Of a stretch of DNA of 37,190 nucleotides, positions 15,322 to 22,825 are shown piece by piece. The notes below the pieces were generated by a model. That model did not search any database. It was not told where the DNA came from and was given only the letters and a program-made list of their open reading frames with translations. A program made the position numbers and the translations under genes. Every line of letters begins with the position of its first letter. Position 1 is the stretch's first letter. Location of the stretch: assembly GCA_003141435.1 (NCBI GenBank), contig PLLW01000077.1, positions 13,810-50,999 of the forward strand, read 5' to 3'. The DNA is from Ignavibacteriales bacterium. Lineage in GTDB: Bacteria > Bacteroidota > Ignavibacteria > Ignavibacteriales > Ignavibacteriaceae.

Positions 15322-16539
15322 TTATTTAACTGAATCTTTATTTACAAGCATCTCTTCAACAATTGTGTTTGTATCCAAAGCAATCAGAAGTTCCTCATTT
15401 GTAGGGATGCGCATGACAGTTACTTTAGAACCTTTAGGAGAAATAACGAATTCCTTTGTCCTATTCTTTTCAGGATCAATGCTGATGCCCATGAAATCCA
15501 TATCTTTACATACTTCTGCCCTAACATCCGGAGAATTTTCACCTATACCGCCGGTAAAAACGATTGCATCAGTTCCATTCATAGCAGCAGCATAAGCGCC
15601 AAGATATTTTTTAATTCTGTAACAGAATATATCAAAGGCATACTGTGATCTTTTATGTGCTTCTTTTACAGAAGCAATAATTTCGCGCATATCACTTGAT
15701 TCACCGCTAATACCTATGAGACCGCTATGTTTATTTAAGAGAGTTTGAGCTTCGCCGAGTGATAGTCCTTCTTTTCCCATTATATAAAGAATTACCGAAG
15801 GATCAATATCACCACTTCTTGTCCCCATAAGCAATCCCTCAAGTGGAGTAAAGCCCATTGTAGTATCGACCGACCTTCCATTATTCACAGCAGCCATACT
15901 GCAACCATTACCCAAATGCATAGTAATTATTTTTAATTCATCTTTCGGTTTTCCTAAAATCTCCGCTGCTTTATTAGTAACATAAAGATGAGATGTACCG
16001 TGGAACCCATACCTTCTGATTTTATATTTTTTATATAGTTCATAGGGGATGCCATAAAGAAAAGCCTTTGGAGGCATTTTAACATGAAAGGCAGTATCAA
16101 ATACAGCGCATTGCGGAGTACCCGGAAGAATTCTTTTACAAGCCTGGATACCTTTTATATTAGAAGGATTATGCAGAGGAGCGAGTTCAATATTATCCTG
16201 CAATACCTGCATGACCTCATCATTGATCAATGCTGAGGCAGAAAATGTTTCACCACCATGCACGACCCTATGTCCAACAGCTTCAATATCGCGCTTATCA
16301 TCGATTACGCCATGGTTCTTACTAAGCATTACACCAAGCACATATTCAATCGCAATTGTATGATCTAATATTTCACCAACAATTTTTATTTCATCACCAT
16401 CATACCTTGTATGGGAAAGGACTGCACCACTCATACCGATCCTCTCAACGACACCTTTTGCAAGAGCGGTTTGCGTATTAGTATCATAGAACTGGTATTT
16501 AATTGAAGAGCTACCGCAATTTAGAACTAACACTTTCAT
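15322..16539 (-). CDS. ackA: Acetate kinase
   Basis: The 405-residue protein interconverts acetyl phosphate plus ADP with acetate plus ATP. It starts MKVLVLNCGSSSIKYQFYDT and carries HRVVHGGE, the catalytic-region TAFHVKMPPKAFLYGIPYEL, RRYGFHGTSH, HLGNGCSMAAV, MGFTPLEGLLMGTRSGDIDP and FTGGIGENSPDVR, all AckA signatures. The ATG at 16539 has AAGGAGGGG upstream; ten more upstream codons open in frame lie in the ribosome site and are not used. The gene starts 1 bp after the stop of the 3-hydroxyacyl-CoA dehydrogenase, so both are surely one operon. No phosphotransacetylase is present. Confidence 0.94.
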   Translation of the reverse strand: MKVLVLNCGSSSIKYQFYDTNTQTALAKGVVERIGMSGAVLSHTRYDGDEIKIVGEILDHTIAIEYVLGVMLSKNHGVIDDKRDIEAVGHRVVHGGETFSASALINDEVMQVLQDNIELAPLHNPSNIKGIQACKRILPGTPQCAVFDTAFHVKMPPKAFLYGIPYELYKKYKIRRYGFHGTSHLYVTNKAAEILGKPKDELKIITMHLGNGCSMAAVNNGRSVDTTMGFTPLEGLLMGTRSGDIDPSVILYIMGKEGLSLGEAQTLLNKHSGLIGISGESSDMREIIASVKEAHKRSQYAFDIFCYRIKKYLGAYAAAMNGTDAIVFTGGIGENSPDVRAEVCKDMDFMGISIDPEKNRTKEFVISPKGSKVTVMRIPTNEELLIALDTNTIVEEMLVNKDSVK

Positions 16540-16540
16540 A

Positions 16541-17497
16541 TTATATCCCCTCCTTTTCAGTACCGGCAATTATATTACCGTGTTCATCATATTTATAAAA
16601 TCCCTCACCAGTTTTCTTACCAAGTTTTCTTTCCCGCACAAGTTTTCTAAGAATTGGGCAAGCTCTATATCGTGGTTCGCCCAAGGTTTTCCATAAAGTT
16701 TCCATCCAGGCAAGGACTTCATCAAGTCCCATCATATCAGCCATTTCGAGAGGACCATTCTGGAAATTATATCCAAGTTTCATAGCTGTATCGATATCTT
16801 TTGCAGTAGCAACTCCCTCCATAAGGATATACATAGCTTCGTTGAGAAGAGGAACGATAGCACGAGTAGTAACAAAGCCAGGATATTCATAGACCTCAAC
16901 TGCTGTTTTTCCTATCCTTGCAGCAAATGCCTTTACAATCTCAACCGTTTCATTGGAAGTGTAGAGGCATTTTACCAATTCTACCAAAGGGATTTTGGGA
17001 ACAGGATTCAGGAAATGCATTCCGATTATTTTATCACGCCTATTAGTAACCTCTGCTATTTTAGTGAGGCTAAGAGTAGAGGTATTGGACACAATGATAG
17101 TGTCCTTACCGGCAAGTTTATCAAGTTTTCTGAATATCTCTTTCTTTAATTCAAAATCTTCATCGACAGCCTCAATAATGATATCCCTGCCTTTAACTTT
17201 TTCAATGTCGAGTTCCCAAGTAATCCTTCCCAGAACAGATTTCTTTTCGCTCCGAGTCATTGCCCATCTATTAATTTCCCTGTCAATATTTTCCGACAGG
17301 TCAGCTTTAGCATGATCGAGATGTTCCTTGTTCTTTTCAATTACCATTACATCAATACCGGCAGAAGCGATGGTCTGCGCTATGCCCTGACCCATAACAC
17401 CGGCACCAATAATTGCAACACACGGGATATGTTCAGTTCCCGGCATTTTCTCCATTTTAGTTAACAGATCTTCCAGTTTTAGATTTTCATCCTGCAT
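16541..17497 (-). CDS. 3-hydroxyacyl-CoA dehydrogenase (3-hydroxybutyryl-CoA dehydrogenase type)
   Basis: The enzyme oxidises 3-hydroxyacyl-CoA with NAD(P), or the reverse. The dinucleotide motif is G31-A-G33-V-M-G36. The catalytic His and Glu are H161 (GMHFLNPVPKIPLVELV) and E173, with N219 in LLNEAMYILMEG. The C-terminal domain ends GLDEVLAWMETLW...KKTGEGFYKY. At 318 residues it is about 35 longer than typical clostridial Hbd because of an N-terminal extension of about 25 residues; M15 or M18 are other possible starts. Pairing with ackA suggests a role in butyryl-CoA/acetate-type acyl metabolism, but thiolase and crotonase genes are absent here. Confidence 0.88.
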   Translation of the reverse strand: MQDENLKLEDLLTKMEKMPGTEHIPCVAIIGAGVMGQGIAQTIASAGIDVMVIEKNKEHLDHAKADLSENIDREINRWAMTRSEKKSVLGRITWELDIEKVKGRDIIIEAVDEDFELKKEIFRKLDKLAGKDTIIVSNTSTLSLTKIAEVTNRRDKIIGMHFLNPVPKIPLVELVKCLYTSNETVEIVKAFAARIGKTAVEVYEYPGFVTTRAIVPLLNEAMYILMEGVATAKDIDTAMKLGYNFQNGPLEMADMMGLDEVLAWMETLWKTLGEPRYRACPILRKLVRERKLGKKTGEGFYKYDEHGNIIAGTEKEGI

Positions 17498-20948: not shown

Positions 20949-21503
20949 TTATATCATTTCCGAAAGGAGTTCCTGGCGGGGGTTGGCGATGATAACTTTA
21001 TTTACAAGGAGACCTTTATCGCTAACGACTTTTGCACCTGCTTCCACTGCGGCGGTAACAGCGGCGACTTCGCCTGTACATGTGAAGAATGCTTTTCCAC
21101 CGAGTGCCATAGCAAGGCGGACTTCAATGAGTTTTATATTAGCTGATTTGACAGCAGCATCAGCACCTTCGATAAGGGATGCAACGGAATAGGCTTCAAC
21201 TATTCCGAGGGACTCGAGCATATCGACATTAGTCTGTCCGGATATTGCGGGGAAAATTGATTTATGCACATTAGGAATTACAAAGAAATCGATTACGCCA
21301 AAACCAATTGTATCGACAGCAGCATTTATGGCTGAATTCACAGCGGCAACATCACCACCAATAAGGGTCATGTATTTACCGGAGCAGATTGTACGGGATA
21401 AAATCAGTTCCACATTTGATGTCTTAAGCATAATATCCGCAGCCTGCATACCAGATGCAATGCTTCCCATTTCAATTAGTCCGATTGAATTCATTTCCAT
21501 CAT
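20949..21503 (-). CDS. PduT-like bacterial microcompartment trimeric shell protein (tandem BMC domains)
   Basis: The 184-residue protein contains two fused BMC folds, about 5-90 and 95-180. The first opens IGLIEMGSIASGMQAADIMLK and the second LGIVEAYSVASLIEGADAAVKSANI, the classic BMC strand-helix pattern. C40 in SRTICSGKYMTLIGG corresponds to the PduT cysteine (C38) that binds a [4Fe-4S] cluster at the trimer pore. The first ATG at 21503 follows AGGAATTATA, but M2 or M4 would also fit. It starts 8 bp after the stop of a PduS-like gene, so the pair form an operon. The protein should sit in a shell and pass electrons across it. The main shell genes must be elsewhere. Confidence 0.85.
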   Translation of the reverse strand: MMEMNSIGLIEMGSIASGMQAADIMLKTSNVELILSRTICSGKYMTLIGGDVAAVNSAINAAVDTIGFGVIDFFVIPNVHKSIFPAISGQTNVDMLESLGIVEAYSVASLIEGADAAVKSANIKLIEVRLAMALGGKAFFTCTGEVAAVTAAVEAGAKVVSDKGLLVNKVIIANPRQELLSEMI

Positions 21504-21511
21504 TATAATTC

Positions 21512-22825
21512 CTATTTATTTATCCTTATATAATCTTCGGTAACCTGAGAAACTGTTCCTGAAATTGAGGCATGGATATGCGCGCCGAGTTTATTTTCAG
21601 GGACTAACGCTATTAAATCTCCCTCTTCCACTCTGTCACCAATTTTAACTTTGGGGAGTGTCCGTTCGCCGATATGCTGTTTCAGGAATATCTTAACGCT
21701 TGAGGGGACGGGAAGCTCTTTATTGTATGGAGTGTGAACGTCATAGTCCTGAACGTTTAATCTCTTGACCAGCATTTTGATAGGGACTCTTCTCCCCTCT
21801 TTGATGGGATGCACTTTGACAGGTTTGGACTGAATATATTTTATACCTTCGGTTCTCATTTCCTTTTTAGCTTTATCGCATGCTTCCTTGGGGTAGAGAT
21901 CTTCGGGACACGAATAGAGGGTACAGAGTCCGCATGCGCAGCATAGTTCAGCCATCTGGTTCCAAATTGCCGATCCTGTTTTAGAAAAGCCAAGCGACCT
22001 CATGACTTTGTGGGGCTGCACATCATAGCCGAGCAAATAGCGGGGGCAGAATTCAGTGCAGTAGCTGCATTGATCGCATGCAGATTTACCTATCCTGTAC
22101 CAATTCTGCGGGGGTTGGTTTTTTCTTTTAATAGAGTAATGATCTTTAGGCAGTAAAATCAATCCCGCGGTGGTTTTAGTGACTACTTCGTCCAGGTCGA
22201 ATGTTAGTCTTCCCATCATTAAGCCGCCGATGAAGATACCAAAATCTTTTATGGTGGCACCGCCAGCATGTTCGATGACTTCCCTAAAGGATGTACCTAT
22301 GTGGACGAAGAAAGAGGATGGTTTTTTAACTGCACCGGTTACTGTCAGGAATTTCTTTGTAACAGGGATGCCCTTTTCAGCATTAGCTATATTGAAGAAT
22401 GTCTCTACATTATTTACAACGCAGCCCACATCAAGAGGGATACCGGCGGGCGGGATGAGGCGTCCTGTAGCGGAGTAGACCAACTCATATTCATCGCCCG
22501 AAGGATAGAAATCACCAAGTTCCGTAATCTTAATTTTTTTATTTCCTATCTGAGCTTTAATTGCATCAATAGCGGCAGCATTCTTGGATTTGATTCCGAA
22601 GTAACCAAGTTTAGCATTAGTGGATTCGATCATTTTTTCCATTCCCCTGACAATAAGACCGGGGAAATTTACCATCAGCTCAAAATCTTTGTGGATAAGG
22701 GGCTCGCATTCAGCACCATTGGCAAGGACAAACTCAGGGCGTGAGCCAGCTTTTATATGAGAAGGGAAACCTGCTCCCCCGGCACCAACGACACCGGCAT
22801 CAAATATTTTATCTTTTATAGACAT
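21512..22825 (-). CDS. PduS-like electron-transfer flavoprotein (RnfC/SLBB, two Fe-S clusters)
   Basis: In Pdu microcompartments PduS passes electrons, probably to cobalamin, using FMN and two [4Fe-4S] clusters. Here the N-terminal flavin/NADH region has VVGAGGAGFPSHIK and ANGAECEPLI. A central SLBB strand region (TVTGAVKKPSSFFVHIGTSFREVI) follows. The cluster motifs are C250-x2-C253-x2-C256-x3-C260 and C295-x2-C298-x2-C301-x4-C306. The C-terminus (GDRVEEGDLIALVPENKLGAHIHASISGTVSQV) is a biotinyl-like barrel. The 437 residues match PduS length. Its gene lies 8 bp before a PduT-like shell gene. A generic RnfC-like protein is less likely given that partner. Confidence 0.87.
   Translation of the reverse strand: MSIKDKIFDAGVVGAGGAGFPSHIKAGSRPEFVLANGAECEPLIHKDFELMVNFPGLIVRGMEKMIESTNAKLGYFGIKSKNAAAIDAIKAQIGNKKIKITELGDFYPSGDEYELVYSATGRLIPPAGIPLDVGCVVNNVETFFNIANAEKGIPVTKKFLTVTGAVKKPSSFFVHIGTSFREVIEHAGGATIKDFGIFIGGLMMGRLTFDLDEVVTKTTAGLILLPKDHYSIKRKNQPPQNWYRIGKSACDQCSYCTEFCPRYLLGYDVQPHKVMRSLGFSKTGSAIWNQMAELCCACGLCTLYSCPEDLYPKEACDKAKKEMRTEGIKYIQSKPVKVHPIKEGRRVPIKMLVKRLNVQDYDVHTPYNKELPVPSSVKIFLKQHIGERTLPKVKIGDRVEEGDLIALVPENKLGAHIHASISGTVSQVTEDYIRINK

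What the first reader, a model, noticed from the sequence alone, without database searches (positions are those of the whole stretch)
20949..22825. Orphan PduS/PduT-like operon: a satellite bacterial-microcompartment electron-transfer module
A flavin/Fe-S protein with C250-C260 and C295-C306 cluster motifs is encoded 8 bp before a tandem-BMC shell protein with the PduT-equivalent cysteine (C40). No other shell, vertex or signature-enzyme gene is in this 37-kb window. PduS and PduT usually sit inside complete BMC operons. The organism may use them with a BMC elsewhere, or they may form a standalone electron conduit.
Basis: partly seen in the sequence, partly recalled or inferred. Interest (0 to 1): 0.75.

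Follow-up and report, generated by a model that had tools for sequence, protein, structure and literature searches.

The report
Electron-export piece of a scattered organelle
Two neighbouring genes encode a redox enzyme and an iron-sulfur-type shell protein of a bacterial protein-shelled organelle whose remaining genes are scattered around the same genome; this fragmented organelle is already known from these bacteria, but its redox pair and its enzyme cargo are hardly described.

Summary
A PduS-like flavin/Fe-S protein (21512-22825, minus) lies 8 bp before a tandem-BMC shell protein (20949-21503, minus). All eight cluster cysteines (88/88 homologues) and the pore cysteine C40 (95/95) are invariant, and the shell model matches Fe-S PduT (3pac, TM 0.92).

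It is neither orphan nor standalone. The genome also holds two BMC-H genes, three BMC-P genes and an acetylating aldehyde dehydrogenase with a C-terminal encapsulation-type helix, on four other contigs. In relatives assembled as one contig the set occupies five sites, 15 kb to over 2 Mb apart. This fits the FRAG (fragmented) microcompartment already reported in Ignavibacteriae. In 116 genomes of the order, 76 of 84 with this dehydrogenase have the PduS; another carries a EUT-type PduS/PduT pair as an isolated dyad. About seven lack the pair. The same isolated dyad occurs in Bryobacterales (Acidobacteriota).

Most likely function (inferred): PduS reoxidises lumen NADH made by the dehydrogenase and passes electrons through the PduT-like pore to the cytosol. 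No PduL was found. Substrate and signature enzyme remain unknown.

New member of a known kind: a remote electron module conserved across an order, useful but not startling.

The parts
21512..22825 (-). pduS-like gene: FMN/NADH-binding (51K), SLBB, di-[4Fe-4S] and C-terminal RnfC_N domains, 437 aa
   Evidence: Pfam; relatives at 60-92% identity in 80 of 116 genomes of the order, nearly always one copy
20949..21503 (-). pduT-like gene: tandem-BMC (BMC-T, single-layer) shell protein, 184 aa
   Evidence: two PF00936 domains; AlphaFold model pLDDT 89.9 matches PduT 3pac at TM 0.92
21504..21511 (-). 8-bp spacer between the two genes (operon)
   Evidence: sequence; spacing short (about -28 to +60 bp) in nearly all of 91 homologous pairs
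22769..22786 (-). GxGxxG (G14-G19), NADH/FMN-binding glycine motif of PduS
   Evidence: sequence; motif described for PduS in PMC2982820
22046..22078 (-). first tetracysteine motif C250xxC253xxC256xxxC260
   Evidence: invariant 88/88
21908..21943 (-). second tetracysteine motif C295xxC298xxC301xxxxC306
   Evidence: invariant 88/88; x4 spacing as in PduS, x3 in RnfC
21384..21386 (-). codon of pore cysteine C40 of the BMC-T (motif C-S-G-K-Y)
   Evidence: invariant 95/95; aligns with PduT Cys38

Best explanation
The two genes are the electron-transfer module of a FRAG-type (fragmented) metabolosome of Ignavibacteriota. The PduS-like protein takes electrons from NADH inside the shell through FMN and two [4Fe-4S] clusters. 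It docks on the inner face of the PduT-like trimer, whose three C40 residues hold a [4Fe-4S] cluster in the pore, and electrons leave to a cytosolic acceptor. This would regenerate NAD+ for the encapsulated acetylating aldehyde dehydrogenase (aldehyde + CoA + NAD+ to acyl-CoA + NADH). The shell (2 BMC-H, 3 BMC-P) and the dehydrogenase are encoded at four other sites. SHOWN here: gene identity, cofactor-ligand conservation, PduT fold, the dispersed but complete shell set, a conserved amphipathic C-terminal tail on the dehydrogenase, and strong co-occurrence. INFERRED: physical assembly, Fe-S binding, direction of electron flow, substrate. Confidence: about 0.9 that it belongs to the scattered BMC, about 0.5 for NADH venting as the main role.
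For: Own genome: two BMC-H genes on C81, two BMC-P genes on C118, one BMC-P on C46, AldDH on C113, PduST on C109. Relatives assembled as one contig show five separate sites: PduST, AldDH, BMC-P3, BMC-P pair and BMC-H pair are 109-2175 kb apart in G025 and 129-2260 kb in G027. In G031 all are 103 kb or more apart except AldDH and BMC-P3 at 15 kb. AldDH is TIGR02518-like (615.1 bits, cut-off 620.1) and carries an ~80-aa extension: a variable linker ending in a conserved (F/Y)GxGI(S/T)EEEIxKIIxEF-like helix in most of 16 full-length relatives, degenerate in L157. Of 84 genomes with this AldDH, 76 have the PduS; of 32 without, 4 do (Fisher p about 1e-15, not corrected for phylogeny). In G045 the dyad is replaced by a EUT-type PduS/PduT, again isolated, which suggests the function is wanted. 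Citrobacter PduS oxidises NADH and binds PduT (PMC2982820).
Against: Six or seven genomes keep FRAG shell/AldDH genes but lack PduS/T (G006, G012, G096, G038, G043, G075, perhaps G115), so the module is not strictly required. No PduL-type phosphotransacylase was found in the own genome. Signature enzyme, AlcDH and Pta were not searched. Nothing shows co-expression or co-assembly of the scattered genes.
Confidence: 0.75

Rival explanations
1. PduS/PduT work inside the scattered BMC but in another redox job: reducing corrin for a B12-dependent signature enzyme (as in Pdu) or supplying electrons inward.
For: Citrobacter PduS is a cobalamin reductase (PMC2982820). The nearest pair found inside a full operon is in a Desulfuromusa ethanolamine (B12) locus with EutB, EutC and an EutT-PduL fusion (gene names by my reading of the ORFs).
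Against: PduS/PduT also occur in B12-independent GRM compartments (PMC6325248). No conserved enzyme gene accompanies the pair in the Ignavibacteriota loci compared, and the FRAG type has no known signature enzyme (PMC8217296). EutBC was not searched in the own genome.
Confidence: 0.15
2. A standalone conduit: the pair acts without any shell.
For: G086 (99% complete) has an intact pair (PduS 76%, BMC-T 90% identical) but no BMC-P, BMC-H or AldDH hit.
Against: One genome only. Its contig has the length (31,777) of a contig titled coverage 2.4, the bin is 4% contaminated, and mis-binning is possible. In 79 of 80 genomes with this PduS, BMC-P genes are present.
Confidence: 0.05
3. The BMC processes a sugar phosphate. 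The class II aldolase near the third BMC-P (C46) is the signature enzyme, and PduS/T disposes of its reductant.
For: It is the only PF00596 gene in the genome. It lies 4-5 kb from BMC-P3 in five of eight genomes. Class II aldolases are signature enzymes in PVM, GRM5 and ACI compartments (PMC8217296).
Against: It has no encapsulation-type extension (218 aa), was not seen at that place in G056, G061 and G017, and sits in a block of ddl, metF and other housekeeping genes.
Confidence: 0.15
4. A misassembly or decaying remnant.
For: The window comes from a draft genome of 123 contigs.
Against: The same isolated pair with invariant ligands occurs in about 80 named loci and in relatives assembled as one contig.
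Confidence: 0.02

Closest known systems
FRAG-type bacterial microcompartments (Sutter et al. 2021, PMC8217296)
   Same: Shell genes at several separate genomic places, three BMC-P paralogues, a remote AldDH, no obvious signature enzyme, reported in Ignavibacteriae.
   Different: The paper's main text does not contain the word PduS and does not describe an encapsulation tail on the FRAG AldDH; its supplement could not be read. Shell-tree clade not tested here.
PduS/PduT pair of Pdu, Eut2 and GRM compartments
   Same: Domain make-up, both tetracysteine motifs, pore cysteine, gene order and tight spacing.
   Different: Encoded alone, remote from every other BMC gene. Below the NCBIfam eut_PduT cut-off (111.2 vs 250.3 bits) and only 45% (PduS) identical to the EUT-type pair of the same order.
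Desulfuromusa ethanolamine (EUT) locus, L084/L095
   Same: PduS 56-57%, PduT 65-68%, a related AldDH (47-48%) and a BMC-H with the same kind of C-terminal motif.
   Different: One compact operon with EutB, EutC, EutL, EutQ and an EutT-PduL fusion.
RnfC of the Rnf complex
   Same: 51K, SLBB, Fer4 and RnfC_N domains; TIGR01945 241.4 bits (cut-off 245.95).
   Different: RnfC_N is at the C-terminus instead of the N-terminus; the second cluster motif is Cx4C instead of Cx3C; no rnf genes beside it.

Membership tests
FRAG-type BMC | shell genes split over several genomic locations | tested here: met
   shell genes on four contigs of the own genome (AldDH on a fifth); five sites on one contig in G025 and G027, four to five in G031
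FRAG-type BMC | three BMC-P paralogues (triplet) | tested here: met
   3 PF03319 genes in the own genome and in most of the order; membership of the grey/orange clades not tested
FRAG-type BMC | AldDH (PF00171) present, mostly remote | tested here: met
   C113, remote from the shell genes
FRAG-type BMC | no recognisable signature enzyme | tested here: inconclusive
   no aldehyde-generating enzyme near the sites except one class II aldolase near BMC-P3; EutBC and diol dehydratase not searched genome-wide
FRAG-type BMC | shell proteins fall in FRAG clades of the published trees | not tested
   reference sequences not available here
PduT | tandem BMC domain, single-layer trimer fold | tested here: met
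   (3pac TM 0.92); trimer itself not modelled
PduT | pore cysteine in C-(P/S/A)-G-(K/R/S)-(Y/F) | tested here: met
   C40-S-G-K-Y; C40 in 95/95
PduT | score above the NCBIfam eut_PduT equivalog cut-off | tested here: not met
   111.2 vs 250.3 bits; hence called PduT-like
PduT | binds [4Fe-4S] in the pore | not testable with these tools
   needs EPR or a structure
PduS | 51K + SLBB + Fer4_17 + RnfC_N domains | tested here: met
   domain list in PMC6325248
PduS | two tetracysteine motifs and GxGxxG | tested here: met
   88/88 for the eight cysteines; motif spacing as in PMC2982820; GxGxxG from the sequence
PduS | NADH-dependent, FMN-binding, interacts with PduT | not testable with these tools
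   biochemistry needed; both genes found in 91 of 97 loci examined, adjacent in 87
RnfC | N-terminal RnfC_N domain, Rnf operon context | tested here: not met
   RnfC_N C-terminal; no rnf genes adjacent

The most novel reading that the evidence does not exclude
The Ignavibacteriota FRAG compartment is a housekeeping organelle, embedded gene by gene in conserved housekeeping neighbourhoods, that regenerates NAD+ mainly by exporting electrons through PduS/PduT to the cytosol or respiratory chain rather than by an encapsulated alcohol dehydrogenase. The PduS/PduT pair is an exchangeable plug-in module shared with Acidobacteriota.
Probability: 0.25. Interest if true: 0.65.

Novelty: new member of a known kind. 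Interest (0 to 1): 0.4.

Why it matters
FRAG compartments were left without a function in the 2021 catalogue. This work assembles a parts list for the Ignavibacteriota version: two BMC-H (one with a conserved C-terminal motif), three BMC-P, a PduT-like pore protein with PduS, and a tagged EutE/AdhE-type acetylating dehydrogenase. It shows the redox pair is a regular, exchangeable component. That makes the role of PduS/PduT testable in a system with no known B12 or glycyl-radical enzyme, and it warns that locus-based BMC surveys can miss compartments whose genes are dispersed.

Tried and rejected
RnfC assignment: rejected on domain order and motif spacing. Standalone conduit based on G086: rejected as main reading because it rests on one probably low-coverage contig. 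Class II aldolase as signature enzyme: kept only as a rival. A conserved neighbour gene of the pair across families: none found beyond PduS/PduT themselves; the acetate-kinase-family gene about 4.4 kb from the BMC-T gene in the window is not part of a conserved neighbourhood. PduL search in the own genome: nothing. Rfam scan of the window: nothing. Promoter/terminator scan: no more hits than in shuffled sequence, and the sigma-70 consensus may not suit this phylum.

Full report
WHAT IS THERE. Pfam finds Complex1_51K, SLBB, Fer4_17 and a C-terminal RnfC_N in the first, and two BMC domains in the second. The cysteine spacing CxxCxxCxxxC / CxxCxxCxxxxC is that of Citrobacter PduS (PMC2982820). 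RnfC differs in domain order and in the second motif. In 88 aligned homologues all eight ligands are invariant; the shell protein's C40 is invariant in 95 of 95, whereas its only other cysteine varies freely. C40 aligns with the pore cysteine of PduT. An AlphaFold model (pLDDT 89.9) has as its best PDB match 3pac, PduT with its 4Fe-4S site, TM 0.92. The protein scores below NCBI's eut_PduT cut-off (111.2 vs 250.3), so 'PduT-like' is the safe name.

IS IT ORPHAN? No. The own genome (3.08 Mb, 123 contigs) encodes two BMC-H on C81, two BMC-P on C118, one BMC-P on C46 and a CoA-acylating aldehyde dehydrogenase on C113. The pair's contig has no further shell gene. Because different contigs do not prove distance, I mapped the set in relatives assembled as one contig. 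In G025 the sites lie at 1.41 (PduST), 2.08 (AldDH), 2.19 (BMC-P3), 2.70 (BMC-P pair) and 3.09 Mb (BMC-H pair). In G027 they are again at five places. In G031 AldDH and BMC-P3 are 15 kb apart and the rest at least 103 kb apart. Most sites keep the same housekeeping neighbours across families: rel/ruvX for BMC-H, deoB and a sigma factor for the BMC-P pair, dprA/rarA for BMC-P3. The PduST site has no common neighbours (gene names by my reading of the ORFs).

HOW GENERAL. Among 116 genomes of the order (at least 85% complete), 111 have BMC domains and 96 have BMC-P. By my count 84 have this AldDH, including one truncated hit, and 80 have this PduS. AldDH and PduS coincide in 76. The Fisher p of about 1e-15 ignores relatedness and is only indicative. 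Six or seven genomes have the FRAG set without PduS/T, two of them in the same genus (G012, G096), so the module can be lost. G045 has the FRAG set with a EUT-type pair, again isolated, between an amylase-like gene and the contig end: apparently a replacement of one PduST by another. G003 and G066 instead carry a compact locus with shell, AldDH, PduS and PduT within about 15 kb; in G003 it also holds EutA/B/C/L-like genes. Outside the phylum, Bryobacterales (Acidobacteriota) carry the same pair (PduT 65-68%), with no other BMC gene within the flanks held. Desulfuromusa carries it inside a EUT operon.

THE CARGO. The AldDH is closest to TIGR02518, acetylating acetaldehyde dehydrogenase (615 bits, cut-off 620), and to the AdhE aldehyde domain. 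Beyond the catalytic domain it carries a variable linker and a terminal (F/Y)GxGI(S/T)EEEIxKIIxEF-like helix. The motif is recognisable in nearly all of 16 relatives and degenerate in L157. Its hydrophobic moment is at or above the 94th percentile of windows in the same protein in 14 of 16, and lower in L173 and L157. This matches the published description of encapsulation peptides (PMC8217296). No PduL was found. One BMC-H has a conserved C-terminal motif also seen in Desulfuromusa EUT BMC-H.

MECHANISM. From established PduS/PduT biochemistry (NADH reduces PduS; PduS binds PduT; PduT cluster potential +99 mV; PMC2982820, PMC6325248) and the parts above, the most economical model is NAD+ regeneration for the encapsulated AldDH by electron export through the PduT-like pore. 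Assembly, direction and substrate are inferred. Alternatives are listed under rivals.

KNOWN OR NEW. The fragmented BMC is the FRAG type of Sutter et al. 2021, explicitly reported in Ignavibacteriae; Axen et al. 2014 had already noted seven BMC-P over five loci in Melioribacter (PMC4207490). A text search for PduT with Ignavibacter found only Axen 2014, and the 2021 main text does not contain 'PduS'. Supplements could not be read, so the pair may be listed there. Hence: new member of a known kind.

Noticed in passing
L008:12564-13340 (own contig C81): Second FRAG BMC-H (258 aa) has a long linker and a C-terminal motif LNVHxLRRLARxFxNFPIKGREIS+ANR+EL conserved in all nine FRAG genomes checked and, weaker, in Desulfuromusa EUT BMC-H; no Pfam match.
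   Followed up: partly
L016:5624-7210 (own contig C113): Acetylating aldehyde dehydrogenase with a conserved encapsulation-peptide-like C-terminal tail, the probable cargo of the FRAG compartment.
   Followed up: yes
L202:7884-9786 (genome G045): Isolated EUT-type PduS/PduT pair in a genome that has the FRAG shell and AldDH but not the usual FRAG pair: apparent replacement.
   Followed up: partly
L075-L094 (Bryobacterales and other Acidobacteriota among them): The same PduS/PduT pair, with no other BMC gene within the up to 10 kb flanks held, in a second phylum.
   Followed up: partly
L199:7098-8974 (genome G086): Intact pair in a genome with no detectable BMC-H, BMC-P or AldDH; the contig may be mis-binned.
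   Followed up: partly
L010:14626-15282 (own contig C46): The genome's only class II aldolase lies about 4.3 kb from the third BMC-P gene, conserved in five of eight genomes.
   Followed up: partly
window 15322-17497 (-): Acetate-kinase-family gene overlapping a 3-hydroxyacyl-CoA dehydrogenase gene, 3-4 kb downstream of the pair; not conserved beside the pair in relatives.
   Followed up: partly
L158:8448-9441 (genome G021): Two divergent BMC-domain ORFs, the second with the FRAG BMC-H2 tail, in a one-contig genome without BMC-P, PduS or this AldDH: a possible shell remnant or shell-less use of BMC domains.
   Followed up: no
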